Below are positions 5,131-18,961 of a stretch of 64,000 nt of DNA, one piece after another (position 1 is the stretch's first letter; every line of letters starts with the position of its first letter). The stretch is from Roseofilum halophilum BLCC-M91 (GTDB lineage Bacteria > Cyanobacteriota > Cyanobacteriia > Cyanobacteriales > Desertifilaceae). The translations under genes were made by a program, and so were the position numbers. The notes beneath the pieces are model-generated. The model was not told the DNA's origin. It saw nothing but the letters and a program-made list of their open reading frames with translations, and made no database searches. The stretch lies in NCBI RefSeq assembly GCF_030068445.1, contig NZ_JAQPOK010000090.1, positions 1-64,000 of the forward strand, given 5' to 3'.

Positions 5131-6240
5131 CTACAATAACTCTTCTACATGGAAGGCGCTATAGAAAAATGCTTTATCTTGATGATACAGATGGCGGGCT
5201 AAATCGGAAAGGGGTTTAATTTGACTTGACTCTTCCGGAGAACAATGGCGGGGAACTAATAAATTCCAATAGGCTAACCTGCCCCCTTTACGCCCTTTTT
5301 GAATCATTTTTTCTAGAATTTGGTGATAAGAATCTAAGGACATATATTCAAACATATCACTGAGATTGTAACGATCAATAGTCCGATCGGGTAACTGATT
5401 GAGAAAGCTTTCTACCGAACAACAGTGCCATTCTAGGCGATGGAGATTGGCGCGAATGGTGTCAAAATGTTCTGGACGGAGGGCATAGGGTAGGGCTGTG
5501 GTATGATGACCGGTTAAAATCCATTGCAAATAGGGATTATCTGCCGGGTTCAGTTGGGTTAAAGCATATTCGGTACGCTCAAAAATCCGTTCAGCAACAT
5601 TGTCCGTCACATATTGAAAAAAACTGGGGTCTCGCCCTAGGTTTCCCATCACAGTGCGAGAGAAAAAAATCCGAAACATCCATCGCCAACGCCAGCTATT
5701 CCAAACGCGATCGTAAAAGGTTTGTCGCTCCTGGAGTGTTCCCCCTTGCAAGAGTCGTTGAATCTGGTTTTTGCGATGCACTAAGGGTAAAATATAGCGG
5801 CGAAAAATCTGAAAGTAGCGCTCAAATTTACCACTATTTCCGATTCCCCGGTCAATTTCTTGGGGGTGGTTATCCCAAAATTGTTGTCCTTGAGGGGAAA
5901 GGTGGGAACGACAGCGCTGATAGAGGGTTGTTCGGGTAATGGGTTCTGGGATTTCGAGTTCACTCCCGATTAGATATAATAGCTCTGGATGACTCAAGCA
6001 CCGATAGGCTGCCACCCGCAATTCTAAACTGGCTAGTTGTGCTAAACTCAGGTCTAGGGCAATGACTCGTTGTGGGGATTGGGTTAAGAGGGCTAGGGTA
6101 TTCTCACCGGCGGAAGCGATGGATAAACAGGTATCTCCAGGTTGAATGGCTAACCCTTGCAGGAGAATATCTGCATCCTCCCAACATTGACCATAGCGAA
6201 TGTGGGAGAATTGGGCACGGGTTTCAATTTCGCTAGACAT
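5131..6240 (-). CDS. DUF3419 (BtaA-like) family protein
   Basis: The protein has 369 aa and an ATG start at 6240. The N-terminal motif YGQCWEDADILL is followed by a Rossmann-like nucleotide motif (CLSIASAGENTLALL). Both are characteristic of DUF3419, the family that includes BtaA. BtaA transfers the 3-amino-3-carboxypropyl group from S-adenosylmethionine to diacylglycerol in betaine-lipid synthesis. Near the C-terminus, DRYNLSDMFEYMS is also conserved in the family. No BtaB-like methyltransferase is adjacent, so betaine-lipid synthesis cannot be assumed, and the substrate remains open. The length is normal for the family. The gene follows tRNA-Gly on the same strand. Confidence 0.82.
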   Translation of the reverse strand: MSSEIETRAQFSHIRYGQCWEDADILLQGLAIQPGDTCLSIASAGENTLALLTQSPQRVIALDLSLAQLASLELRVAAYRCLSHPELLYLIGSELEIPEPITRTTLYQRCRSHLSPQGQQFWDNHPQEIDRGIGNSGKFERYFQIFRRYILPLVHRKNQIQRLLQGGTLQERQTFYDRVWNSWRWRWMFRIFFSRTVMGNLGRDPSFFQYVTDNVAERIFERTEYALTQLNPADNPYLQWILTGHHTTALPYALRPEHFDTIRANLHRLEWHCCSVESFLNQLPDRTIDRYNLSDMFEYMSLDSYHQILEKMIQKGRKGGRLAYWNLLVPRHCSPEESSQIKPLSDLARHLYHQDKAFFYSAFHVEELL

Positions 6241-6277: not shown

Positions 6278-6348
6278 AGCGGGTAGCGGGAATCGAACCC
6301 GCATATTCAGCTTGGGAAGCTGACATTTTACCACTAAATTATACCCGC
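6278..6348 (-). tRNA. tRNA-Gly (anticodon CCC)
   Basis: A 71-nt cloverleaf is read on the minus strand. The 7-bp acceptor stem is GCGGGTA paired with TACCCGC, followed by a U discriminator, as usual for glycine tRNAs. The anticodon stem TCAGC/GCTGA encloses loop TTCCCAA, giving anticodon CCC. The T-arm GGGTTCGATTCCC is canonical. No CCA is encoded. Confidence 0.95.
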
Positions 6349-7179: not shown

Positions 7180-9057
7180 TCAGAGATTAAAGAGGGTTTT
7201 CATCCGAGATTTAATTTGCTCTAAGAGGTCGGTTTCGTTTTCTTCTAGTAGGCCATATTCTGCAAGGAGTTGCTTGCGCTCTTCGAGTTCGGTTTGGTGA
7301 CGATGGAGGTCTTGGGCAATTTGTTCGGCCATTTGGGGATATTGGTGGAGGACTTTACCAAAGTTGAGGCGATTGATGGAGAAGAGGGTGGTTTCTTCGA
7401 TCGCGATCGCCGTTGCGGTGCGCGTCCCCCCCAACATCAGCGCGAGTTCTCCAAAGGATTTTCCCGTAGAGAGGGTAACTAAGGGCTTGTTGATTTTTTC
7501 AACAAAGATGCGGACGGAACCGGTGAGGATGGTATAAAACTCATCTCCGGGTTGATCTTCGCGACAGATATAATCCCCGACATGAAAGCGTTTAATCTTG
7601 CCGTTCGTGATTAACTGCCGTAACTGTTCAGAGGTTAGGTGTTGATAGTAGGGCACTTGTGCAAGAAGCTGAGGTAGATGGGGATGGTAGTCATAAACGG
7701 CGCGAATACAGGAGGCTTTTTTCTGCCATTTTTTCAAGGCGGTGAGTTCATAGGGGTTGTCTTTCGACTGGCTCACCTGGAAATTCAAGAGGTTGAGCTG
7801 TTCTTCCAAGCTTTGTTGGCGATCGCCCGTCTCTACCGCCATCTCGACAAACACTCTGGCCAATTCTCCCACTTCATCCTTACGTTCGGTTAAGCTCTCT
7901 AAGGTTTGGGGATCAAAGGACTTGGATTTAATTTGATTGGCGGCTTCACCAAATTGAAAAATCGGTTTAAGAACCCAGCGACTGACTCCTAAACCCACCC
8001 CTAGAGCCGCTAATAAAATCAAGGCTTCTAAAACCAGCGTAATCCGAGCCTGGATTTGCACTTGCTGCATAAAATCTTCTTCAGGGACGATCGCCACAAT
8101 CAGCAAATCTAGACCTAAGCGATCGCGAAAGCTTTTGACTTGGAAATAGAGTTTTTTCCTTTGCCACCGAAAAGATGAGTTGATGGTACTTTCAACTTGA
8201 GAGAAGCTGCCCAATTCATCTAACAAGCTTTGGGCGATCGCCGCGATCAACTGGTTTTCACTCTCAGCAATATTCAATCCCCCTGAACTCTCCACTGCTT
8301 CTGCAATCACTTCAGGGTTAGAGCTGGCAATCAATAACCCTTGGCGATCGATAATTAAAGCTTGTCCCGTCTTACCAATGGTTAAAGTTTGCAGAAATTC
8401 GTTAATCTGGCCAAAGAGCAGATCGACCCCCAAAACACCAACGACTTCACCTTGAGGATCTTTAACCACTTGAGCCGCAGTAATGGCTAATTCTTGGCTA
8501 TCAAAATCTCGATAGATATCACTCCAAATCGGTCGATCGGATGGCAGAGCCGCTTGATACCAAGGGCGACTTCGGGGATCGTAATTGGGAGTTCGTTGGA
8601 CAATTTGGGTTGGCTGCCCCTCTGAAGTTGTTGCATAACTCATTAATGTAGAATTGGTCGTTTTTCCCGCTCTAGTTATTCCCACTTCTCCCGATTCAAG
8701 AATGGTTGCCCCCCGAAATTCACCTTCAGGATTACTAAAATAGAGACGGGTAACCCCCTCAAACATTTGAATTTGATGCCAAAAATAAGACTCTAACCGT
8801 GTTGAATTTCCCGGATCAAGAGTACCTAACGTAATACTTTGAAGATTGAGTTGATTGATGGTATGGGGAATCGATAGATAGTCCCGAAGGTTATTTTCTA
8901 CATGAGCTGTAACGGTATTCGCAAGTTCCACAGAAACAATATTGACATTTTGTTTTGTATTTTGGAATAAAGCGATCGCAACCAATCCTACGACTAAAAT
9001 AGACGGTGCAACAATGAGGATAGGAAGACGATATTTAATAGAAAAATTTTTAATCAT
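7180..9057 (-). CDS. Cache-HAMP membrane sensor with C-terminal cyclic-nucleotide-binding domain
   Basis: The protein has 625 aa. TM1 is about residues 10-30. The periplasmic part is a double-Cache sensor (RPWYQAA at 165-170, WSDIYRDF, GVLGVDLLFGQI). TM2 is about 338-360, followed by HAMP and a short helix (to about 430). A linker with motif ALKKWQKKASCIR (440-452) matches the C-termini of the next two proteins. Residues 465-590 form a cNMP-binding domain. Its phosphate-binding cassette FGELALMLGGTRTATA (535-550) keeps the Glu and Arg that contact the nucleotide, so cAMP or cGMP binding is expected. There is no kinase, cyclase or chemoreceptor domain. The start overlaps the upstream gene by 8 nt, which suggests translational coupling. 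Confidence 0.9.
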   Translation of the reverse strand: MIKNFSIKYRLPILIVAPSILVVGLVAIALFQNTKQNVNIVSVELANTVTAHVENNLRDYLSIPHTINQLNLQSITLGTLDPGNSTRLESYFWHQIQMFEGVTRLYFSNPEGEFRGATILESGEVGITRAGKTTNSTLMSYATTSEGQPTQIVQRTPNYDPRSRPWYQAALPSDRPIWSDIYRDFDSQELAITAAQVVKDPQGEVVGVLGVDLLFGQINEFLQTLTIGKTGQALIIDRQGLLIASSNPEVIAEAVESSGGLNIAESENQLIAAIAQSLLDELGSFSQVESTINSSFRWQRKKLYFQVKSFRDRLGLDLLIVAIVPEEDFMQQVQIQARITLVLEALILLAALGVGLGVSRWVLKPIFQFGEAANQIKSKSFDPQTLESLTERKDEVGELARVFVEMAVETGDRQQSLEEQLNLLNFQVSQSKDNPYELTALKKWQKKASCIRAVYDYHPHLPQLLAQVPYYQHLTSEQLRQLITNGKIKRFHVGDYICREDQPGDEFYTILTGSVRIFVEKINKPLVTLSTGKSFGELALMLGGTRTATAIAIEETTLFSINRLNFGKVLHQYPQMAEQIAQDLHRHQTELEERKQLLAEYGLLEENETDLLEQIKSRMKTLFNL

Positions 9058-10450
9058 TTTTTATCGGATTTTTTTGACGAATTCGTTGAGATTTTTGCTT
9101 TAATTTATCCCAATAGCTTAAGTTTAACTCTGGAGATCGATCCGAATCTTCTGAAGAGGAAATATTTGCTTTTTTTTGATAACTACTTAAGGACTCAATC
9201 CGTTGTTCTAATCGAGTTTGTCGTTCTTGAATTAACACAGCCATTTCTTCAAAAACACGACTAAACTGGCCGATTTCATCATTGCGTTTAACTAGGTCAA
9301 TATTTTTTTGAGGATTAAACTTTTGATTTTTTACTTTTTTGGCAGTTGTATTCAAACGGAGTAGGGGAGATACCACCAATTGATTCATATTCCAAACCGC
9401 TAAAATACTGCCAATAAAGGCTGTCACCATCAGGAAGACTTGAATTCTGTTGTTTTGACCAGAGTTAAAGACATCAGACTCAGATAAAATGACAAGCGTT
9501 ACCCAGTTTAAATTCCATTGGCTTTCAATGGGTTCCACCCACACCAAATACCGTTGATTATTTTGCACAAAAATCAAAGATTGAGCTTCAGAAATTAGAC
9601 TAAAATCACTCAATTGACGAATTAACATTTCTCCAACTCCCTGAATTATTGGATCGGGGCTTTCTGTAATCATTAAATGAGTTTCGGATTCTGGATCGAG
9701 TACGGTTAATGGATCGGGATCGGAACTGGCAATAAATTGTCCATTTTGTTGAATAATTAAAATTTTTGCTGCTTTACTAATGGATAAATCACGGAGAAAT
9801 TCATGGATACTATTGAGAAAATAATCGACTGCTACAACTCCAACTAAATTCCCTTGGCGATCGCGCACGGCTTGAGCGGCGGTAATGGCTAATTGGCGAG
9901 TGGTAAAATCTGGATAGACGGGACTCCAAACCAGATTATTGCTTTTCTCTGCTGCTTGATACCAGGGGCGAGTAGTTGGATTAAATACTGCGTTTTGATT
10001 TAGGATTTGACCTCGTTCCCCTCCTCGATTTAGGGTATAAGTAACCAATTGATAATCCGTTTCTTTCCCAGCATATGATTGAGAAAATCGCCCATTATCC
10101 CTAATTTTAACACCAACAAAATCTCGATTTGAATAGCCAAAATAAATGTTATTAATTGACGAAAACAATCGAATTTGATTATAAAAATGAAGGGTTAATT
10201 GCTGTGGATCGTTCCAGATTGATGGATTAGAGTGATAAGGATTTAAGCTCAGTTTGTGAATCATCTCTGGTTTACGAAGATTGATGCGAACTTGGCTTTT
10301 AATTTGATTCACAGATTCTCGCATCCAATTCCTGGAGAGTTCATGTACCGTTTGATCTCGATTATAAGTGGCAAGAAATCCAGTAAGTCCTAAAGTTGCA
10401 ATTAAGGGCGTAACGGTTAAAATAGGAATGATTTTTTTCAAAGAAACCAT
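9050..10450 (-). CDS. Cache-HAMP membrane sensor without output domain (second of three)
   Basis: The protein has 466 aa with an ATG at 10450. TM1 is about residues 7-27. The double-Cache periplasmic domain carries RPWYQAA (161-167) and LAITAAQAVRD. TM2 is about 337-355. HAMP and a short helix follow (RNDEIGQFSRVFEEMAVLIQ). It ends soon after with SYWDKLKQKSQRIRQK (445-460). This short motif resembles the tail of the neighbouring sensor and the linker of the cNMP-containing one. No enzymatic domain is present. The gene lies 17 nt below 10468 and overlaps the next gene by 8 nt, so the three are very probably one operon. A role in ligand sensing by conformational change or oligomerisation is inferred. 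Confidence 0.88.
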   Translation of the reverse strand: MVSLKKIIPILTVTPLIATLGLTGFLATYNRDQTVHELSRNWMRESVNQIKSQVRINLRKPEMIHKLSLNPYHSNPSIWNDPQQLTLHFYNQIRLFSSINNIYFGYSNRDFVGVKIRDNGRFSQSYAGKETDYQLVTYTLNRGGERGQILNQNAVFNPTTRPWYQAAEKSNNLVWSPVYPDFTTRQLAITAAQAVRDRQGNLVGVVAVDYFLNSIHEFLRDLSISKAAKILIIQQNGQFIASSDPDPLTVLDPESETHLMITESPDPIIQGVGEMLIRQLSDFSLISEAQSLIFVQNNQRYLVWVEPIESQWNLNWVTLVILSESDVFNSGQNNRIQVFLMVTAFIGSILAVWNMNQLVVSPLLRLNTTAKKVKNQKFNPQKNIDLVKRNDEIGQFSRVFEEMAVLIQERQTRLEQRIESLSSYQKKANISSSEDSDRSPELNLSYWDKLKQKSQRIRQKNPIKND

Positions 10451-10467
10451 AAATAGACCTGAGTAAA

Positions 10468-11709
10468 TTATTCTTTATTTCTAATCCATTGAGCTTTACG
10501 CTTTAAGGCTTTAAAATAAGCAACTTCCAGCTCTTGGGCTTGGTTTAAGTTAGCATTTTGCATTCTGAGTTTTCGGACTTGTTCTGCCAAATTTTGTTGC
10601 CGAGAATCCACGACTTTAATCATTTCATCAAACCCCCGCGCTAGTTGCCCGATTTCATCCCCTCTGTGACTGATTTTCCGTAGCTTTTGAGATTTGATCG
10701 TTAAGTTACCCTCGGTCACTTGATTAACATTTTTGGCGATTTCTAAGATGGGTTGGGTCATTTTTTGGGATAAAATATAGACAATTAGCAATAAAGTTAC
10801 TGAAACTAAACAGCCCCAAAGGAGTAAATTTTTGGCAATGGTTCCCGAAACTTGAAAGGCTTCTTCTCGCGTAATTTCTACCAGGATGGCTAAGTTTTTA
10901 TCTTCTAGCCATCGGTAACTGCCAATCACTTCCACTTGTTGATGATTTTGATAAAAATCAATCCCATCTTGACCGGACATTACGGCATCAATTCCTGGAC
11001 TGCGTACCCATTCATTGGCTAAGTCTGTATTTTGGGTATCGACCAAGCGATTTTCTTGTCCCTGTTTGCGGATTAAATAGGCTTCATCGGTTTCTCCAAG
11101 TCCGGTGGCTTCTTGCATAATTTCATGGATTTTTTCTAGGGATAAATCGACTGATAATACCCCTATTCTTTCCCCTTGCTCGTTGAGTAAGGGGGTGGCG
11201 AAGGTCATGGCAGTTTCCCGTGTAATGGGGGAAGTATATAAGGTGGGGCGAACGGTGTCTAGGTTTTCTTTCGTAAAATAAGTAACGGTATTTCCCAAGG
11301 GTTGGTAGTTCCCTTCTTCTTCTCCTTGAGTTGAGATCGATACGATGCCGCTATTGGTGGAGATGGATAAGGATTGGAATGTGTTTTCGGTTTCTAAAAT
11401 GGTGTTGAAGTAATTCTGAAGCACTTGATAGGCTTGCCGATTGTTGGTGTTGAGATAGGTTTGATAGGAGTCGAAAATGGTGGGGCTTTGGGAGATCAAT
11501 AAGATGGTTTTGTGTTGTTGGTAAAACCAGTTATCAATCTGATTTTCTTTAATCGAAATGACCACTTCCATTTGACTGGTAATGGATTTTTTGAGCAGTT
11601 CAACGGACTGATAGTAAATGACGATCGCCAATCCCACCACTGTGACGAGGGACAAGATGGAAAAATAACCCACATGCTGGATCAGTAAACTATTATGCCA
11701 ACGTTTCAT
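10468..11709 (-). CDS. Cache-HAMP membrane sensor without output domain (first of three)
   Basis: The protein has 413 aa with an ATG at 11709. TM1 is about residues 14-33. A periplasmic dCache region (ENTFQSLSIST, PITRETAMTFATPLLNEQG, GVLSVDLSLEKIHEIM) is followed by TM2 (LLLWGCLVSVTLLLIVYIL), HAMP (ILEIAKNVNQVTEGNLTI) and a short helix (RGDEIGQLARGFDEMIK). The C-terminus, VAYFKALKRKAQWIRNKE, is the tail motif shared with its two neighbours. There is no histidine kinase, GGDEF, PP2C or methyl-accepting domain. The gene begins 43 nt after the DUF4159-like tail-module gene, so the sensors may be co-transcribed with the phage-tail-like genes. Confidence 0.88.
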   Translation of the reverse strand: MKRWHNSLLIQHVGYFSILSLVTVVGLAIVIYYQSVELLKKSITSQMEVVISIKENQIDNWFYQQHKTILLISQSPTIFDSYQTYLNTNNRQAYQVLQNYFNTILETENTFQSLSISTNSGIVSISTQGEEEGNYQPLGNTVTYFTKENLDTVRPTLYTSPITRETAMTFATPLLNEQGERIGVLSVDLSLEKIHEIMQEATGLGETDEAYLIRKQGQENRLVDTQNTDLANEWVRSPGIDAVMSGQDGIDFYQNHQQVEVIGSYRWLEDKNLAILVEITREEAFQVSGTIAKNLLLWGCLVSVTLLLIVYILSQKMTQPILEIAKNVNQVTEGNLTIKSQKLRKISHRGDEIGQLARGFDEMIKVVDSRQQNLAEQVRKLRMQNANLNQAQELEVAYFKALKRKAQWIRNKE

Positions 11710-11752
11710 TCTGGTTTCCTCATGATGTCTTGTTCGTCTGCTCCCTCTGAGC

Positions 11753-13147
11753 CTACTGTTGCAATTGGGTTAAATGCCGTCTGCGCCAGGCAAAATGTAA
11801 GAGATTAATCCCCAGCTCTTGGGCGTTGCGAATTTTTTCTCTGGGTAACTCTAGTCCACTATCGAGTCCCCAGGCTAGGGATAAATCCCCGATCGCCAAA
11901 ATGACCCCTCCCCAATTAAACAACCGCACCGGATTTTGCTTGATTTTCGGTAAAGCGCTAAATAAAAAGGGTTGGGTTTTAATCGGATGCCATGGGGATA
12001 ATTGCCCCAAGTGAGTGCCAGACATGCCTAAATTGAGGGATAATTGTTCGATGGAGCCACAAATTTCTTCAATTTGGCGACTTAATTCTTGCTCACAGGC
12101 GGCTAATTCTTCGTTTAATTGGGTTTTTACGTCCTGTAACTCGGCAGTATCCCCAATATCGGCGATCGCCTCTAGGAGTTCTTGCTGAACAAAACTTAAC
12201 TCGTCTACCTGGGTTTCTTCTTCCAATAGCTCAATGAAGATGACTCCCCCTAATCCTAAATAAGATCGTAAACTAGCCTGTTGAGCCTCATTGGTATTCA
12301 GCGCTTGCTCATAGCTTAAATAAATTAAATCATAGTTTTGCCAAGCCAATCCCTGACGAGCAGCCGTCGCTTCCCAAGACTCCTCAACCCCTTGGGAAAT
12401 CTCTGTATTCCAAGTCACCGCATCAACCCCATCAATGCCTCGCATTCCCGGATCGAGAAGCTCAAAGGCTTGTAGTAAACAGGATAAATTAGAAGCGGTG
12501 AGGCGATCGCCCCCATTCCCCCCCTGCATATAAGCCACCTGTACCGTTCCTTGGGGGCGCACCCCCACAGGAGAACGATAGCGCAGATCCAACTGATTAA
12601 TCTGCGGAGCAAATACATTCCCCGATGCAGATAATTGCACCGTTCCCGGAGAGAGCTGCAACCGGCATAATTCCACCTCTAAACCCGATGGCGGACTACT
12701 TTTTTCATCGATGCGGAACGTCTCCCGAACCAGTTCCGCCTCAGAAGTGCGCTGGAGAGTCTCCGGATCGACATAACTGAGAACCAAATACACCGTAACC
12801 GGCGTTTCCTTGGGGGTGAGAGCGATGCGAAAGGCGATCGCCTCATCTACAATAATCGGATTCCCCATCCGGTCAATAGCCATCCCCGGTTGCAACTCCA
12901 CCCAGCGTCCATCTCGATACTGGGCCGGGATGTCCTCCGGTGCTGGAATTACCTTCACCCCCAAACCATAGACAATTCCAGGTTGATGGAGCGCTTGATA
13001 ATACAAATTCTGGCGCTGTCGATGGTAATCATGGGCCCGTTGCCAACGATGAGCATTCAGCAGCAAACCATCCTGAACAACCAACCGCTCTAGGGGAACA
13101 GGGTAGGGAAACTCTGTCCCGCTTCCCGAATCAGCAGATAACGTCAC
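11753..13147 (-). CDS. Tail-module protein with C-terminal DUF4159-like domain
   Basis: The protein has 464 aa and a GTG start at 13147. The first 200 residues (LVVQDGLLLNAHRWQRAHDY, GIVYGLGVKV, LQPGMAIDRMGNPIIV) resemble proteins found beside contractile-tail baseplate genes in bacteria. They describe a surface-exposed beta domain of unknown role. The C-terminal half (about 240-460) resembles DUF4159, a glutamine-amidotransferase-like fold often described as a putative carbohydrate-binding or regulatory domain (YDLIYLSYEQ, SYLGLGGVIFIE, LGINLLHFAWRRR). A coiled coil is inserted at about 315-370. It lies 97 nt below the tail-I-like gene and 43 nt above the sensors. The assignment of the N-terminus rests on remembered resemblance and gene order. 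Confidence 0.72.
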   Translation of the reverse strand: MTLSADSGSGTEFPYPVPLERLVVQDGLLLNAHRWQRAHDYHRQRQNLYYQALHQPGIVYGLGVKVIPAPEDIPAQYRDGRWVELQPGMAIDRMGNPIIVDEAIAFRIALTPKETPVTVYLVLSYVDPETLQRTSEAELVRETFRIDEKSSPPSGLEVELCRLQLSPGTVQLSASGNVFAPQINQLDLRYRSPVGVRPQGTVQVAYMQGGNGGDRLTASNLSCLLQAFELLDPGMRGIDGVDAVTWNTEISQGVEESWEATAARQGLAWQNYDLIYLSYEQALNTNEAQQASLRSYLGLGGVIFIELLEEETQVDELSFVQQELLEAIADIGDTAELQDVKTQLNEELAACEQELSRQIEEICGSIEQLSLNLGMSGTHLGQLSPWHPIKTQPFLFSALPKIKQNPVRLFNWGGVILAIGDLSLAWGLDSGLELPREKIRNAQELGINLLHFAWRRRHLTQLQQ

Positions 13148-13244
13148 AAGCCTTACTCAATCGAGATCTGTAAGAGATAGTATGACCATAAAACTGTCAT
13201 CTTAAGACAAAAATTAAAACTTAATTAACTTTTGCCCTATCCAC

Positions 13245-14240
13245 CTAACCCATGTGCAACTCATAGGTACAAAATGCCGGTTTTTGCTGCACAATCACCT
13301 GACGCACCAAAGCCTCATCCACTGACCCCGGAGGATCGGGTCGCAAATGTACCCGAAAATGGAACGGTTGTCCGCCCCCCAAGAGGGCATCTTGTCCTAA
13401 AATCGAATTGCCCAAAACCAAGCCTTGACTAAAGGTTTCTAAAATTGCAATATGTTTATCTTCCTCCCGTTCCACCTCTTCATCTAAGGGTAAACCCGTA
13501 GCCAAATGTAAATAGAGTCGCAATCCCCTGCGAGTGCCTCGCCAGCGATAAATCTCTAGGGCATGGCGAATGAGCGATCGCTGTTGCTCTAAACTCAAAT
13601 AAGACTGCAATTCCCAACCCACCCAATGGGCCAAAAACGGCAGCATCGATTCAGGAGCCGTCAACGGGTCGAGATAAGCCGATAAACTCCCCATCATCTG
13701 CACATCCGGGTTAAACGTTTCCTCAATAATCTTCAAAAACCGCCCCACAAAATCCACTTCCCGATAGATTTGGGGCAAAAAGTCTAAATACTTAGATTGG
13801 GGACGCACATAAAAGTTAATATCCGCCACATCAATCAATTGGCTGGCTGTTCCCGGAACTGCGCCATAAACTTGAAGCCGACCACTATAATTAATCCGTA
13901 AACTCGAATCTTCTCTTAAGGCGAAAAACCCTTCAAAAAAATCATCCGGGGGTTGAAATTCTAGCACAATATCTTCAGTCGTTCCCGGAGCAATTTGGGG
14001 ATGTTCGGTCTCGCAAGAATACCAAGCTTGGGGTAAATTTCCCCGAAATTCTAGGGTCACACTCAGGGGTTGTTCTCCAGGATTTCCCAGTTTCACCATA
14101 AGCTGGCTCAGTTCTCCCGGAATTAGCATTAAAGGAATACCTTCCGGGGCTAAAGGGTCATCCAGAAATTCTGGGTCTGCATCCGGCAGACGCATGGGAA
14201 TCACATCAAAATAAAGAGGACTAGAACGGGCAAGAGTCAT
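13245..14240 (-). CDS. Phage tail-I-like baseplate protein of a contractile injection system
   Basis: The protein has 331 aa with an ATG at 14240. Residues 1-150 form an Ig-like beta domain (SVTLEFRGNLPQAWYSC). From residue about 155 the sequence matches the bacterial tail-protein domain of the TIGR02242 type: YLDFLPQIYREVDFVGRFLK, then YLDPLTAPESMLPFLAHWVG and IYRWRGTRRGLRLYL. In extracellular and thylakoid-anchored contractile injection systems such proteins sit at the baseplate periphery, next to the J-like wedge protein encoded just upstream. No capsid, terminase or portal genes are present, so this is not a prophage. Sheath and tube genes are not in the window. Confidence 0.85.
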   Translation of the reverse strand: MTLARSSPLYFDVIPMRLPDADPEFLDDPLAPEGIPLMLIPGELSQLMVKLGNPGEQPLSVTLEFRGNLPQAWYSCETEHPQIAPGTTEDIVLEFQPPDDFFEGFFALREDSSLRINYSGRLQVYGAVPGTASQLIDVADINFYVRPQSKYLDFLPQIYREVDFVGRFLKIIEETFNPDVQMMGSLSAYLDPLTAPESMLPFLAHWVGWELQSYLSLEQQRSLIRHALEIYRWRGTRRGLRLYLHLATGLPLDEEVEREEDKHIAILETFSQGLVLGNSILGQDALLGGGQPFHFRVHLRPDPPGSVDEALVRQVIVQQKPAFCTYELHMG

Positions 14241-14380
14241 GGGTTTGATTGACTAGAAATTTCATACGGATGGACTGATGTCACTACGAGTGGGGGATTG
14301 ACACTAATGTTAATAAAAAGTCATAGAAATATTCCGTTTTTGGATCTCCTCTAAAGCATGATTAGAAAATGGGTAATTCA

Positions 14381-16558
14381 TTACTCGATGATATTAATCA
14401 TGTGATTCGATCGCAGATTCGGATCGGCCCAGGAACAAATGAGACCGGTGGGGCCGGGGTCAACGAGGGGGACGGGTTGGCTTCTAATCCATTGGCCAGC
14501 CGTGGATAGACGCAGTTCAAACAGTTGCACGGCTCCTAAACGGCGAATACCGGGGACTTGTTGCAACAGGGCGATCGCATCGGACATATAGGCCGGTTGA
14601 CCCAGGGGCCACCCATTCCCCCCTGGGCCGCCGTTCAGGGGGTTAAAGAACCGATACAGGGTCACATTCAGGGCGTGGAGTACCTCGGTTTGGGCTTCTG
14701 GAGTGCGATAGGCCGGGTCTAGGGCAACTTCGGTTTGCACGGAGAGTCCCACATAATCGGGTTCTAAAAGTTCGACTTGCACGCCCAGTAAGCGCCTCTC
14801 ATCTAGGTAAGTCATTAGTTTACGGTGCAGGGGAGGATTGAGGCGAAATTGTTCCGGAGGGATGCCGACTCCCTGTTCGATCGCCTGTCGGTTGCTGTCA
14901 GGAACCACCAAGAGCTGTACGGTTCCCGGTTTTTTGGGGTCGGTGGGTAAGCAGGTGGCGCGGGCGATCGCCCCATCTGAGCCTAAAATGGTCAGAGATT
15001 CAAAGTCTTCTGGAGTCACCGCGCGATCGCGAGTTCGCAACATTTGCGGCACGCGCATGGCTGCTTGTTCAATGGTTTCTGCTTCTGTTCCCTGGCGAGC
15101 GGGGATCAGGTTCACCACATTTGCTACATAGGGAACCGCAGATTTCAGGGTGTTCAGACTGCGAGGTTCCACATTGCCGCGCAGACCTCCCCCCGTGCGA
15201 TAGCGGCTCATTTGCACGGTTGCACCCCTGGGGGGAATGGCTCCATATTGGTGTTCCATGGTTGGAGGTTGGATCAGGGGGCGATCCTGTCCCCGTTGCA
15301 GAATGGCGCGGATATCTTTGGCTTGTTTGAGTTGGGCCGGTTCCCGGATCAGGGGGCCAAACTGGAGCGTACCGGTGAGGGAGTCGATCAGATAATGGCG
15401 ATCGCCTGGACTCGACTGAGAAAAATCGGTTACCTCTTCCCACCGTTGGGGGGTTTCCCCGGTCGGGGTGACGATCAGATATTCATCTTCTTGGCGATCG
15501 AGAATGGGCGATCGCCGCAATTGGAAGATTTGCCCCGGCTCCCCATTACTATTGCCGAGTAGGTCATTTTCGATCGTTTCACATTGGGTCGCTTCTGTGG
15601 TTCCACCGATGGCTTTCACCCCAATACCGATAATTTGCGGCGATCGCGTGTAAGCGGGTTGAGTCAAGCGCGGGGTAGCATAGACACAGCGCAACCATCG
15701 CCCTTGATAGGCCGTAAATTGGGCGACCGGGAACGTTAAGGGTAAATGTAAGGTAATATCCACCCCTTGCAGGGCATTCCCCCCCCGTTGGGCAATATCG
15801 GCAAAGCTAAAGCCTTGGGTTTCATCGTCTGACTCTTCCAGCAGTACCGGCTGCCAATACTGACCATTCCAGGCTTCCCACCGTCGCGGGGGGTCGGTGG
15901 GGTCGATACCGGTGGGGGTGGCTTCTTGGCCTTTGAATGTGAGAATAATTACATTACCATCTAAGGATTCTTGGGGATCAAAGACCAGATAGAAACAGTT
16001 CCCCGGTTGCGGTTGGGCGTTGAAAACCGGCAGTTCCGGGCCTGACCATTCCCTGGTGGGGGTAAGGTTCCAGAGGTTGGTGAAGCGATCGCGTAAAATT
16101 TGCGGCGTTTCCTCGATCTGGTCGGCTCCCAGGAAATGGTTAATTTGGGGATTACCGATGGTTAGGGGGCGATCGGTACTAAACACAATCGGTTCGAGTT
16201 GGGGATTGCGTTCCGTCGCTACTTCAATCCCCGCCGGTATCGTATACGACTCCGGCAAATCCGACACCAAATAAAACGTCACTTCTGTGGTAGCTGGATG
16301 CGGCGGCTCTAAGCGAATACCGAGCAACTCTAAGAATAAAATATAATTGCGCCGAGGCAGTTGATTAAACCGCAACAGCATTTGATGGGTTAACCAGGCA
16401 AACAGTTCAATCATCGTAATGCCTGGATCGCTAGGATTATGATTCGTCCACTCCGGACAATAGCGGGGAATTCTCAGCAGACATTCTTCGATTAAATCTT
16501 GATATTCTCGGTCATCTAAATTCGCTTTCGGCAATTTCGGTAAGAAGTCAAAAACCAT
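14381..16558 (-). CDS. Baseplate assembly protein, J/gp47-like (TIGR02243-type)
   Basis: The protein has 725 aa with an ATG at 16558. The N-terminus (PRYCPEWTNHNPSDPGITM, IELFAWLTHQMLLRFNQLP, ELLGIRL) is a strong signature of the TIGR02243 putative baseplate assembly family. The middle is beta-rich. The C-terminal third holds the J-like segment (RDRAVTPEDFESLTI) and a wedge domain. The length fits the family. The protein would form baseplate wedges that trigger sheath contraction. It is the first gene of the tail-like module, 38 nt downstream of a periplasmic binding lipoprotein on the same strand, so it has little room for its own promoter. Confidence 0.9.
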   Translation of the reverse strand: MVFDFLPKLPKANLDDREYQDLIEECLLRIPRYCPEWTNHNPSDPGITMIELFAWLTHQMLLRFNQLPRRNYILFLELLGIRLEPPHPATTEVTFYLVSDLPESYTIPAGIEVATERNPQLEPIVFSTDRPLTIGNPQINHFLGADQIEETPQILRDRFTNLWNLTPTREWSGPELPVFNAQPQPGNCFYLVFDPQESLDGNVIILTFKGQEATPTGIDPTDPPRRWEAWNGQYWQPVLLEESDDETQGFSFADIAQRGGNALQGVDITLHLPLTFPVAQFTAYQGRWLRCVYATPRLTQPAYTRSPQIIGIGVKAIGGTTEATQCETIENDLLGNSNGEPGQIFQLRRSPILDRQEDEYLIVTPTGETPQRWEEVTDFSQSSPGDRHYLIDSLTGTLQFGPLIREPAQLKQAKDIRAILQRGQDRPLIQPPTMEHQYGAIPPRGATVQMSRYRTGGGLRGNVEPRSLNTLKSAVPYVANVVNLIPARQGTEAETIEQAAMRVPQMLRTRDRAVTPEDFESLTILGSDGAIARATCLPTDPKKPGTVQLLVVPDSNRQAIEQGVGIPPEQFRLNPPLHRKLMTYLDERRLLGVQVELLEPDYVGLSVQTEVALDPAYRTPEAQTEVLHALNVTLYRFFNPLNGGPGGNGWPLGQPAYMSDAIALLQQVPGIRRLGAVQLFELRLSTAGQWIRSQPVPLVDPGPTGLICSWADPNLRSNHMINIIE

Positions 16559-16596
16559 AATCTATTCCTGTCTGCAAAAATTCTGGTCAATCTAGT

Positions 16597-17511
16597 TTAA
16601 CGCTCAATTGGGCGAATTTTTAGCAGTTCTTCACTGGCACGGCGAATCGAATCTAGGGTTCCTGGATTAATTAAACCGTAGTAGTCGAAGACATACACCT
16701 GTTGGGTTTTCACCGCTTTGAGTTCTGACCAAAATCCCTGGGATTCTAACTCTTTTAAGGGAGATTGGCGACCAAACTCGATTACAATTAGAATATCAGG
16801 ATCGATTTGTAAGATTTTTTCTGGGGAGAGGGTAATATAGCCGCTAATGGGGGCATTTCCCTGTAGGTTGGCCGTGACATTCTCAAAGTTGAAGCGGTTT
16901 AAAAGATCCCCAGACCAGCTATTTTTATTCGGCGATAGGATGGGCTGGGTACTGGCCAGAATTAAGGTGGCCGGGCCAGGGGAGGTCGAGGGAGGAATTA
17001 AGGTTTGATATTGGCTTAAAAGCGGTTGAGGGTCAACATTAATGGCTGAGGCGATCGCCTCCGTCAATGATTCTAAGCTCTCCCAACTCTCTAAAGCAGC
17101 TAAATAGGTCTCAATATTCAGCTCTGCTAACCGATCGGCAATGCGATCGTGAAACCCGGTTGCTCCAATGACTAGATCGGGTTTCAGAGCAATAATTTTC
17201 TCTAAACTCGGCGCAGTTTGCCCCTGACTGACAGCAGGGATCTGGGCAAACCGGGGGTCATTCTCTAGTAAGGGACTGCCGGGAATACCCACTAATTTGG
17301 AAGCGTCTAACCGGTGCAAAATATCCGCAGACAGAGAGGTTAAGGCAACCACTCGCTCGACCCGTTCTGTTCTGATTTCTTCTGGAGAACTAAGGGTTGT
17401 TTCTGCTGGGGGAGAACTCTGGGGTTGAGTACAGGCAAATAGACTCAAACTCAGACAGATGGCTAAACCGACTCTGAGCCACCGAGTATATTTGTGCCTG
17501 TTCCTCAACAT
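16597..17511 (-). CDS. Periplasmic-binding lipoprotein, Fe-siderophore/cobalamin type (BtuF/FhuD-like)
   Basis: I place the start at ATG 17511. It gives a lipoprotein signal (basic N-terminus, hydrophobic core, LSLFAC lipobox), has AGGAG about 10 nt upstream, and avoids overlap with the bacterioferritin gene that a longer start would cause. The mature protein has the helical-backbone binding fold of class III solute-binding proteins: VVALTSLSADILHRLDASKL near the start, then KPDLVIGATG, NIETYLA and a C-terminal DSIRRASEELL. These proteins deliver ferric siderophores, heme or cobalamin to ABC importers, but no permease or ATPase lies nearby. The bacterioferritin context favours iron (inference). 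Confidence 0.85.
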   Translation of the reverse strand: MLRNRHKYTRWLRVGLAICLSLSLFACTQPQSSPPAETTLSSPEEIRTERVERVVALTSLSADILHRLDASKLVGIPGSPLLENDPRFAQIPAVSQGQTAPSLEKIIALKPDLVIGATGFHDRIADRLAELNIETYLAALESWESLESLTEAIASAINVDPQPLLSQYQTLIPPSTSPGPATLILASTQPILSPNKNSWSGDLLNRFNFENVTANLQGNAPISGYITLSPEKILQIDPDILIVIEFGRQSPLKELESQGFWSELKAVKTQQVYVFDYYGLINPGTLDSIRRASEELLKIRPIER

Positions 17512-17524
17512 GGCTCGATCGCTC

Positions 17525-17992
17525 CTACATCTGAGATTGCAGATAATTTTGCAACCCAATTTTCTCAATCAATCCCAATTGTTTCTCTAACCAGTAGGCG
17601 TGATCTTCTTCCGTATCGGCTAGAATCACTTTTAAGATTTCGCGAGTTTGATAATCTTGTTGGGTTTCGCAAACGGCGATCGCCTCTTTCAAATCTCCTA
17701 CGACCCGATACTCTAAATCTAAGTCACTTTGCAGCATTGCTGGCACAGTCGAGCCAATGTTCAGCCCGTCCTGTTGGGACAGATCTGGAGTCGTTTCTAA
17801 AAACAATAACCGCTTAATAATCGCATCCGCATGTTGGGTTTCTTCCTGCATTTCATGATCGATGCGCTCATAGAGCTTATTCAATCCCCAATCGTCATAC
17901 ATACGAGAATGGGTAAAATACTGATCCCGTGCGGCGAGTTCACTTTTGAGTAGTTTTTGCAGTTGGGCAATAACTCGATCGTTCCCTTTCAT
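17525..17992 (-). CDS. bfrB: Bacterioferritin subunit with ferroxidase site (BfrB-type)
   Basis: The protein has 155 aa. In E. coli Bfr numbering the di-iron ligands are kept: Glu18, Glu51, His54, Glu94, and a C-terminal Glu128/His131 pair shifted by one residue. Position 52, the heme-ligating Met in classical bacterioferritin, is Thr. The subunit should therefore oxidise and store iron but not bind heme on its own. Its neighbour (18062-18526) shows the reverse pattern. This matches the split bacterioferritin pair described in Synechocystis, where one subunit carries di-iron ligands and the other heme ligands. The stop is 13 nt before the binding lipoprotein start, so the two are probably co-transcribed. 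Confidence 0.92.
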
Positions 17993-18061
17993 CTTTTAAT
18001 TCTCACTCAATCCTTTAACTGATTATTTTCCCATCGCTACCCCTGAGTCAGGGGAACGTCC

Positions 18062-18526
18062 TTACATCATCGATTGCAAGTAATTTTCTAATCCTGAATT
18101 TTCGATCAGCCATTGTTGGGATTCGAGCCAATCAATGGACTCTTCTATATCCTCTAGAATTTCTTCTAGCATATCCCGACTAATATAGTCCTGAACCGAT
18201 TCGCACAGTTGAATCGACCGTTGCAGATCTGCACGTATTTCTTGGTACATCGTCAGATCGTTTTGCAACACTTCCGGCACGGTTTCACCGATGAGCAGTT
18301 TACCTAAATCTTGCAGATTGGGTAAACCTTCCAGAAATAAAATCCGCTCAATCAGCTTATCGGCATGTTTCATCGCTGTAATCGATGCCTTATACACTTT
18401 ATCGTTGAGCTGATGAAGTCCCCAGTTTTTGCAGATTCTGGCATGGAGGAAAAACTGGTTAATTGCCGTCAATTGAAGCTTGAGAGCTGCATTTAATTGG
18501 GTTTTAACATTGGGGTCACCCTGCAT
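18062..18526 (-). CDS. bfrA: Bacterioferritin subunit with heme Met but no ferroxidase site (BfrA-type)
   Basis: The protein has 154 aa with an ATG at 18526. In E. coli numbering Met52 and His54 are present (AMKHAD), so heme can be ligated at a subunit interface. The ferroxidase residues are lost: Glu18 is Gln, Glu51 is Ala, Glu94 is Tyr, and the C-terminal EExH motif is EESI. It should act as the heme/electron-relay partner of the ferroxidase-competent subunit in a mixed 24-mer. The gene is 69 nt upstream of that partner and is divergent from bfd. A candidate Fur box lies between them. Confidence 0.92.
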
Positions 18527-18646
18527 TCGTGTTCTCCTAACTGATGGATTGCTCTTCGATCCAGAGTAGGTCTGGGTTTCGAGCTGTCTTCGCTCATCGT
18601 ACTTGACTTCTGAGGGGCTGTCAATGCATAATAGGAAGTGTTACTT

Positions 18647-18665
18647 GAGAATTGTTTTCATTAAC
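18647..18665. promoter_or_regulatory. Candidate Fur box between bfrA and bfd
   Basis: The 19-mer GAGAATTGTTTTCATTAAC matches 13 of 19 positions of the classical Fur consensus GATAATGATAATCATTATC. It lies in the 192-bp divergent gap between bacterioferritin and bfd, upstream of a TATACT element (18687-18692) that could be the bfd -10 box. Iron control fits the genes. The match is moderate and unproven. Confidence 0.45.
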
Positions 18666-18718
18666 TTAATCTTAAGTTAAGCAAGTTATACTCAATCTAG
18701 TGGAGGCAGTGAACCTGG

Positions 18719-18961
18719 ATGTACATTTGTATCTGTCATGCAGTTACAGACCGTGAAATTCGCAAGGCGGTCGCCCAAGGAGCCTGTTCTGTCGATATGG
18801 TCTGCGATCGCCTGAAAGTCTCCAGTAGTTGTGGTCGTTGTTGGGAACATGCCCATCAAGTGGTTGAGGAAGCGATCGCGGAACATCAAGCCCCTGTAGA
18901 AATTACATCTATTGCCCGTAAACCTCAAGAGGTCTATGGCGATCGCCGTAAAGCTTCTTAA
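18719..18961 (+). CDS. bfd: Bacterioferritin-associated ferredoxin, [2Fe-2S] (Bfd)
   Basis: The protein has 80 aa with ATG 18719 and GGAGG 12 nt upstream. The four cluster ligands are Cys4, Cys6, Cys38 and Cys41 (MYICICHAVTD and SSCGRCWEH), the BFD-like fold arrangement. Bfd passes electrons to bacterioferritin heme to release stored Fe2+. Here it is divergent from the bfrA-bfrB pair, which gives functional context. The C-terminal 25 residues are a basic extension. Confidence 0.92.
   Translation: MYICICHAVTDREIRKAVAQGACSVDMVCDRLKVSSSCGRCWEHAHQVVEEAIAEHQAPVEITSIARKPQEVYGDRRKAS

What the first reader, a model, noticed from the sequence alone, without database searches (positions are those of the whole stretch)
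7180..16558. Phage-tail-like baseplate genes apparently co-transcribed with three Cache-HAMP sensors lacking output domains
On one strand, a TIGR02243-type baseplate protein, a tail-I-like protein and a DUF4159-fusion protein run directly into three membrane Cache-HAMP proteins; gaps are 140, 97, 43 and 17 nt, then an 8-nt overlap. Contractile injection systems in cyanobacteria can be membrane-anchored, and their trigger is poorly understood. Periplasmic ligand sensors encoded with baseplate genes could be the trigger or anchor. The family assignments are established. The functional link is inference from gene order. Sheath, tube and ATPase genes are not here, so this would be a detached sensory/baseplate module.
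Basis: partly seen in the sequence, partly recalled or inferred. Interest (0 to 1): 0.65.

Follow-up and report, generated by a model that had tools for sequence, protein, structure and literature searches.

The report
Membrane sensors wired to injection baseplate
In a number of cyanobacteria the genes for the baseplate of a phage-tail-like injection machine are followed by genes for membrane sensors that carry the same short tail, which suggests that an outside signal tells the machine when or where to fire.

Summary
The six genes and spacings are real, with one correction: the third sensor carries a cyclic-nucleotide-binding domain. The adjacency is conserved. At 23 of 80 named loci holding the third baseplate gene (Cis13-like), the next conserved same-strand gene encodes a Cache-HAMP sensor, and in 23 of 23 a WD40-type gene follows. 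In the window's genus the injection genes are scattered, yet cis13-A-B-C stays together in 6 of 6 genomes. The sensory domain is exchanged between lineages (dCache; heme-type Tll0287-like), while HAMP, coil and a C-terminal stretch (LLxRSxxxRxK-like) are kept, so this tail is probably the output. Sheath, tube, spike, ATPase and gp25 genes exist elsewhere in the genome. Best reading: the sensors gate or recruit a cytoplasmic injection machine through Cis13, like Streptomyces CisA but different in architecture. Physical contact is inferred. Two results limit it: the same tail occurs in other loci, many beside MinD/ParA-like ATPases and some with peptide-export genes, so it is not specific to injection systems; and a Cis13 helical hairpin present at sensor loci cannot be separated from ancestry and also occurs without sensors.

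The parts
14381..16558 (-). Cis11-like baseplate protein (TIGR02243), 725 aa
   Evidence: TIGR02243 631.9 bits; profile of 12 relatives matches PDB 9gtp_1K at 495 bits and Anabaena All3317 (7b5h) at 37.9 bits
13245..14240 (-). Cis12-like baseplate protein (TIGR02242, Tail_P2_I), 331 aa
   Evidence: TIGR02242 122 bits; Tail_P2_I 40.3 bits; 9gtp_E 35.6 bits
11753..13147 (-). Cis13-like connector, 464 aa: tail-fibre-like N-domain, DUF4159-like C-domain with a helical-hairpin insert (residues about 314-372)
   Evidence: DUF4159 32.1 bits, CIS13_fam 39.6 bits, below cutoff; AlphaFold model pLDDT 81.7, pTM 0.63; fold matches Hoch_4089 Z 16.8 and phi812 baseplate chain Z 10.3; TssK is Foldseek's top row (E 3.3e-4, but TM-score 0.19) and Z 6.8
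10468..11709 (-). Sensor A: TM-dCache-TM-HAMP-coil-tail, 413 aa, no catalytic domain
   Evidence: dCache_1 57.6 bits, HAMP 32.5 bits; two TM segments; tail match 92.7 bits
9050..10450 (-). Sensor B: TM-dCache-TM-HAMP-coil-tail, 466 aa, no catalytic domain
   Evidence: dCache_1 65.6 bits, HAMP 19.2 bits, under cutoff; two TM segments; tail match 101.2 bits; model with a last helix 444-460 at low confidence
7180..9057 (-). Sensor C: TM-dCache-TM-HAMP-coil-tail-cNMP-binding domain, 625 aa
   Evidence: dCache_1 78.7, cNMP_binding 66.6, HAMP 25.9 bits; two TM segments; tail match 97 bits
6396..7151 (-). Neighbouring coiled-coil-like protein (orf251), function unknown; follows sensor C in 5 of 6 genomes of the genus, not in G003; probably not part of the module

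Best explanation
A sensor cassette of a contractile injection system. Cis11, Cis12 and Cis13 are baseplate parts of a cytoplasmic phage-tail-like injector whose other genes lie elsewhere in the genome. Sensors A, B and C sit in the membrane with their Cache domains outside the cytoplasm (or in the thylakoid lumen). Ligand binding is passed through the second membrane helix and HAMP to a cytoplasmic coil and a short C-terminal stretch. That stretch binds the baseplate connector Cis13 (or a complex that holds it) and so docks the injector or releases it to fire. In sensor C a cyclic-nucleotide domain adds a second, internal input. Shown: gene content, conserved order, exchange of the sensory domain with conservation of HAMP and tail, purifying selection. 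Inferred: membrane orientation, the contact with Cis13, and the gating role.
For: A tail-bearing sensor is the next conserved same-strand gene after cis13 at 23 of 80 named loci (75 of the 80 have at least 1500 bases downstream), in 23 of 23 immediately followed by the same WD40-type gene, with one predicted TM segment in 21 of 23. In the genus, cis13-A-B-C is intact in 6 of 6 genomes although cis11 is elsewhere in 5 of 6 and cis12 in 1 of 6 (window). dN/dS of A, B, C against G004 and G005: 0.07 to 0.20. Different sensory domains, dCache or Tll0287-like, share the tail. In 8 genomes 10 of 126 dCache rows lie in open frames of at most 520 aa; 8 of these 10 are the cis13-linked ones, against 6 of the other 116. 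In the own genome the only tail-complete matches are the three window sensors (which scored 13 of 40 first-look candidates there). The Cis13 N-domain has a tail-fibre or baseplate-connector-like fold. [quoted passage not shown]
Against: The tail is not specific to injection systems: one search shows 26 tail-complete places without cis13 (13 with); of 20 read around four ORFs either side, none shows baseplate genes and 10 have a MinD/ParA-like ATPase in the locus, so the tail may bind a general partner. 52 of 75 informative named loci have no adjacent sensor, so it is optional. Nine long-hairpin loci lack an adjacent sensor, and three of their genomes (G109, G132, G166) have no tail-complete match (13 candidates scored per genome). 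The hairpin-sensor association gives only 1 to 3 independent pairs on the tree. No contact, transcript or firing data.
Confidence: 0.48

Rival explanations
1. The sensors serve the injection system indirectly. The tail binds a general cyanobacterial signalling partner (for example a MinD/ParA-like ATPase or a cNMP-binding protein), which then controls synthesis, loading or placement of particles. Cis13 is only a genetic neighbour.
For: The same tail occurs in sensors whose loci hold MinD/ParA-like ATPases (10 of 20 loci; four proteins confirmed by family search), and in scanned examples a TIGR03896 cyclic-nucleotide protein and a TIGR03794 secretion protein; cNMP domains recur at both kinds of locus.
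Against: No such ATPase gene was seen beside the cassette in the window; the link that survives when the gene cluster breaks up is to cis13.
Confidence: 0.3
2. The sensors are membrane anchors that hold the particle at a membrane, without a real signalling role.
For: They have two TM segments each, and the window's baseplate proteins show no strong hydrophobic segment (19-residue maxima 0.95 to 1.3), unlike Anabaena Cis13.
Against: Two other conserved proteins with one predicted TM segment are in the genome (C14); the first of them directly follows the sensors at 23 of 23 sensor loci and follows cis13 within two ORFs at 22 of 52 others. Cache ligand motifs and heme-type Cache domains argue for sensing.
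Confidence: 0.12
3. The adjacency is inherited hitch-hiking without functional connection.
For: Related loci share ancestry; 27 of 88 informative loci carry it, and the hairpin association is not independent of the tree.
Against: At least 8 changes of the sensor trait on the Cis13 tree, exchange of sensor type at the same slot, and retention of cis13-A-B-C while the rest of the cluster dispersed.
Confidence: 0.07

Closest known systems
Streptomyces cytoplasmic CIS with membrane protein CisA
   Same: Baseplate genes directly followed by a membrane protein with an extracytoplasmic domain; CisA is needed for contraction and was proposed by its authors as a sensor or checkpoint (PMC12237407, passages and section 9 read). 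The nearest solved Cis11 relative is 9gtp (entry not opened, that it is this system is my inference).
   Different: CisA has one TM segment, an unstructured cytosolic N-part and a C-terminal extracytoplasmic domain; here there are two TM segments, Cache, HAMP and a tail, in up to three copies. CisA is predicted to touch Cis11, here Cis13 is proposed.
Anabaena thylakoid-anchored CIS (tCIS)
   Same: Cyanobacterial injection system with Cis11, Cis12 and Cis13 and membrane association.
   Different: tCIS Cis13 has a TM domain and Cis12 a long extension (PMC8894136, passages); here neither is present, and Cis11 is 725 rather than 1231 aa. The words Cache, HAMP and DUF4159 do not occur in that paper's main text.
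T6SS baseplate adaptor TssK and its membrane complex
   Same: TssK chains are among the top Foldseek rows for the Cis13 model, over its N-domain; TssK joins the baseplate to a membrane complex (role recalled; of the TssK papers only a search listing was seen).
   Different: The match is weak (TM-score 0.19; Z 6.8, within the background level the tool quotes); no TssJLM complex was looked for.
Sensors of cyanobacterial loci with MinD/ParA-like ATPases and NHLP-type export genes
   Same: HAMP plus the same C-terminal tail; the one such sensor scanned without a fusion (L237) matched only sensory and HAMP-like parts of other families.
   Different: Neighbours are a MinD/ParA-like ATPase and, in scanned examples, export genes instead of baseplate genes.

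Membership tests
Contractile injection system | TIGR02243 baseplate protein | tested here: met
   631.9 bits, cutoff 155.8; only match in the genome
Contractile injection system | Sheath, tube, spike, gp25-like, Pvc16-like and AAA ATPase genes in the same genome | tested here: met
   Sheath C6, tubes C6 and C155, gp25 C73, spike-like with Phage_base_V domain C27, AAA and Pvc16_N proteins C6; on four contigs besides the window's
Anabaena-type tCIS | Transmembrane domain in Cis13 | tested here: not met
   Window Cis13 maximum 19-residue hydropathy 1.3
Anabaena-type tCIS | Long Cis12 extension (about residues 610-1100) | tested here: not met
   Window Cis12 is 331 aa
Anabaena-type tCIS | Cis19 crown protein | not tested
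   Not searched
CisA-like firing factor | Membrane protein encoded directly after baseplate genes | tested here: met
CisA-like firing factor | One TM segment, cytosolic N-part, C-terminal extracytoplasmic domain | tested here: not met
   Two TM segments around a Cache domain, HAMP after the second
CisA-like firing factor | Required for contraction | not testable with these tools
   Needs mutants
Conventional Cache-HAMP receptors (kinase, MCP, GGDEF/EAL, phosphatase) | C-terminal catalytic or signalling domain | tested here: not met
   None found by Pfam in A or B; C has only a cNMP-binding domain
dCache_1AA amino-acid sensors | Y, R, W, Y, Y, D ligand residues | tested here: inconclusive
   C: Y159 R164 W166 Y167 Y182 D212; B: F156 R161 W163 Y164 Y179 D209; A: no such stretch. 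Motif positions partly from PMC10104139 and PMC11245519 passages, exact pattern recalled
sCache_heme (Tll0287-like) sensors | PF11845 with CxxCH | tested here: not met
   Not met in the three window sensors; both features present in five sensors at other loci (L058, L116, L123, L134, L158)

The most novel reading that the evidence does not exclude
A modular trigger for contractile injection: interchangeable periplasmic receptors (amino-acid-type dCache, heme-type Cache) linked by HAMP and a short conserved C-terminal stretch to the baseplate connector Cis13, so that an extracellular or luminal chemical signal, and in some versions a cyclic nucleotide, directly licenses firing of the cell's own injector. 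The same tail would also switch other machines such as peptide exporters, making it a general receptor-to-machine plug in cyanobacteria.
Probability: 0.3. Interest if true: 0.88.

Novelty: new variant of a known kind. Interest (0 to 1): 0.68.

Why it matters
What makes a cell-bound contractile injection system fire is poorly understood. Here is a genetically linked, domain-swappable set of membrane receptors, found in cyanobacteria including Planktothrix, Planktothricoides, Arthrospira, Pseudanabaena, Calothrix and Laspinema strains, with guessed ligand classes (amino acids; heme ligands such as NO) and a proposed contact (sensor tail with Cis13). Each step can be tested by gene removal and binding assays.

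Tried and rejected
Cis13 hairpin as proof of contact: insert length is bimodal (38 sequences with 82-109 residues, 54 with 36-40, and one interrupted frame, L112, reading 59). In the script's table of 88 informative loci: long with sensor 26, long without 9, short with 1 (L112), short without 52; Fisher 1.1e-13. The quick tree gives 3 changes of the hairpin, 8 of the sensor, and only 1 to 3 independent pairs, so this is not claimed as independent evidence.

Tail as an injection-specific module: rejected. Of 26 tail-complete non-cis13 places (reaching model position 95 or more, at least 60 bits, my recount) I read 20 and one; G149, G181, G281, G066 and G323 were not read.

Limits of the genome searches: one search scored at most 4 candidates per genome and at most 13, so their counts are lower bounds. 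Of the 25 genomes with a Cis13 match, G187 (weakest, E 5.9e-11) was not fetched. The named census kept the best 80 of 143 relatives.

Cis13 with its own TM helix at L118: set aside as a likely artefact of a false upstream start before a masked stretch.

Sequence relatives of Cis13 in the PDB: the single sequence gave two rows at E 0.43; the profile's best rows were designed and coiled-coil proteins, which I take as compositional.

dN/dS for sensor A against G003 used a guessed, wrong start and is discarded; G003 cis13 gave no dS value; G003 B (0.23) and C (0.10) rest on near-saturated dS.

G275 second tail sensor (L083/L191): no match to the injection queries within its 20 kb, part of which is masked.

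Literature: 'contractile injection system' with 'Cache domain' gave 0 papers; with 'HAMP' and 'baseplate' 20 papers, 15 listed. I opened two of them: in PMC12237407 'hamp' occurs in words such as 'hampered', in PMC10598620 in author names such as Hampton; the other 18 were not opened for this term. With five terms 1 paper; with 'histidine kinase' and 'cyanobacteria' 1 paper (passages mention GerE-linked kinases, no Cache sensors in what was shown). So these searches of an open-access library found no report of the linkage; subscription journals were not searchable.

Full report
Observation. In order of transcription: Cis11-like (TIGR02243, 631.9 bits), Cis12-like (TIGR02242, 122 bits), Cis13-like (DUF4159 32.1 bits; CIS13_fam 39.6 bits, under its cutoff), then sensors A, B and C. 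A and B are TM-dCache-TM-HAMP proteins that stop 49 and 62 residues after the HAMP match (in B that match is under Pfam's cutoff). No promoter- or terminator-like site lies in the 43-nt gap before A, though that scan is weak.

The rest of the machine. The genome (4.85 Mb, 169 contigs, a cyanobacterium) has one sheath gene and a tube gene on C6 beside an AAA ATPase and a Pvc16_N protein, two more tube-like genes at the end of C155, a gp25-like gene on C73, a spike-like gene with a Phage_base_V domain on C27, and on C14 two proteins with one predicted TM segment each, one of WD40 type (the second was scanned as a 1041-aa piece of a 1073-aa frame). TIGR02243 is single-copy. The system is therefore present but scattered.

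Conserved adjacency. In 59 relatives, the own genome included, 25 have a TIGR02243 match. In a sample of 386 cyanobacterial genomes, 25 have a Cis13-like match, a lower bound because at most four candidates per genome were scored. Reading the fetched loci, a Cache or Tll0287-type HAMP sensor is the next gene after cis13 in the window genome, G004, G036, G044, G136, G289, G230 and G275, from seven family groups and more than one order; seven of these eight are among the 25, of which 24 were read (G187 was not). In the named census 143 relatives were found and the best 80 kept; 23 of 80 have a tail-bearing sensor as the next conserved same-strand gene (in L112, L114 and L122 a short ORF or gene fragment lies between), among them Planktothrix, Planktothricoides, Arthrospira, Calothrix, Laspinema, Pseudanabaena, Coleofasciculus and Spirulina. 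Gaps between first possible starts run from -29 to 193 nt in 20 of 23, and 402, 416 and 635 nt in three. In 23 of 23 the next gene is a relative of the WD40-type protein L038:13785-15950, with one predicted TM segment in 21 of 23; among sensor-free informative loci it follows cis13 within two ORFs in 22 of 52. Pfam confirmed WD40 in the two relatives scanned.

The genus. In G001, G002, G003, G004 and G005 cis11 is away from cis13 (in G005 about 40 kb off on the same contig, still next to the same upstream fecB-like gene as in the window). In G003 cis12 is away too; in G005 a 188-aa ORF lies between cis12 and cis13. Yet cis13-A-B-C is intact in 6 of 6 genomes counting the window. dN/dS against G004 and G005 is 0.07 (A), 0.19 (B) and 0.16 to 0.20 (C). 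This is the strongest sign that the sensors belong with Cis13.

The tail. Aligning sensors from different lineages shows that the sensory part varies (dCache; in L058, L116, L123, L134 and L158 a Tll0287-like domain with CxxCH), while HAMP, a coil and a short C-terminal stretch, roughly LLxRSxxxRxK with one invariant arginine among 21 aligned, are kept. It lies at or near the end of the protein, or is followed by a cNMP domain or, in L190 and L122, by a further stretch. The model of B shows it as a last helix, 444-460, but at low confidence (block means 43 to 69). Of the 30 dCache loci read (of 126 rows), 24 are not at cis13, and one of those carries a tail-like end (L083, 46.8 bits). In the eight genomes 10 of 126 dCache rows sit in frames of at most 520 aa; 8 of the 10 are cis13-linked, one is L083, one a 150-aa frame (Fisher 1e-7).

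Against specificity. Over 386 genomes the HAMP-plus-tail profile also matches to its end at 26 places without cis13, against 13 at cis13 loci (my count; at most 13 candidates scored per genome). Of 20 of these places that were fetched, 10 hold a MinD/ParA-like ATPase with a shared N-terminal motif (L230-L232 and L234-L240), four of them confirmed by family search. In the examples scanned, a neighbour is TIGR03896 at 414 bits (L237) and a gene in L230 is TIGR03794 at 392 bits, that is NHLP-type peptide export; in L239 a Nif11 leader is fused to the sensor. The tail is thus a wider cyanobacterial module.

Cis13. The model (pLDDT 81.7, pTM 0.63) has an N-domain like phage tail-fibre or baseplate connectors (phi812 chain Z 10.3) and a C-domain like Hoch_4089 (Z 16.8). 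TssK is Foldseek's top row (E 3.3e-4, TM-score 0.19) but only Z 6.8, so this is a lead. The C-domain carries a helical hairpin (314-331, 335-372) that is long in 38 of 93 sequences, short in 54 and unclear in one interrupted frame. Every sensor locus in that set has the long form apart from the interrupted L112, but nine long-form loci lack a sensor, and on the quick tree the hairpin changes 3 times and the sensor 8, so the association may be ancestry.

Likely working. The sensors probably act as a checkpoint: a signal read outside is passed by HAMP to the tail, which meets Cis13 in the baseplate. Streptomyces CisA offers the precedent: encoded just after the baseplate, membrane-bound, needed for contraction, predicted to touch Cis11 (PMC12237407). 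Sensors B and C have the residues of amino-acid-binding dCache domains, with F for the first Y in B (pattern partly recalled). Tll0287-like domains bind heme c, and a HAMP-linked one binds NO (PMC12889525, a preprint, passages). Ligands are therefore guesses by class. Anabaena tCIS is a different lineage: the Cis11 profile matches All3317 at 37.9 bits but 9gtp at 495 bits, and tCIS Cis13 has a TM domain that the window Cis13 lacks.

Verdict. A functional link between sensors and injection system is likely (about 0.85, my estimate); the specific gating through Cis13 is about even.

Noticed in passing
L239:8108-9922 and L230-L232, L234-L240: Sensors with the same HAMP-tail lie in loci with a MinD/ParA-like ATPase, some with NHLP-type export genes; in L239 a Nif11 RiPP leader is fused to a sensor with HAMP and tail.
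   Followed up: partly
G000 contigs C6, C14, C27, C73, C90, C155: The injection-system genes of this genome are scattered instead of forming one cluster; in the genus cis11 and cis12 also sit at different places between species.
   Followed up: partly
L038:13785-15950 and 16056-18896; own genome C14: Two conserved proteins with one predicted TM segment (one WD40-type) follow cis13 or the sensors in many loci and may be the general membrane partners of this kind of injector.
   Followed up: partly
window 6278-6348, minus strand: tRNA-Gly (CCC) between orf251 and the DUF3419 gene, with a promoter-like site (11 of 12) just upstream.
   Followed up: no
window 5131-6240, minus strand: DUF3419 protein (PF11899, 241 bits), perhaps betaine-lipid type (recalled).
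   Followed up: no
window 16597-18526, minus strand: FecB-like periplasmic binding protein (PF01497) next to two ferritin-domain ORFs (PF00210, about 121 bits each); an iron-related neighbourhood upstream of cis11, also present in G005.
   Followed up: partly
L112: Nostoc sp. LPT MAG: cis13 reads as two ORFs (315 and 96 aa), an interrupted frame or assembly error.
   Followed up: no
L122/L154 and L130/L174: Two metagenome-assembled genomes hold both a long-hairpin and a short-hairpin Cis13, so perhaps two injection systems each.
   Followed up: no
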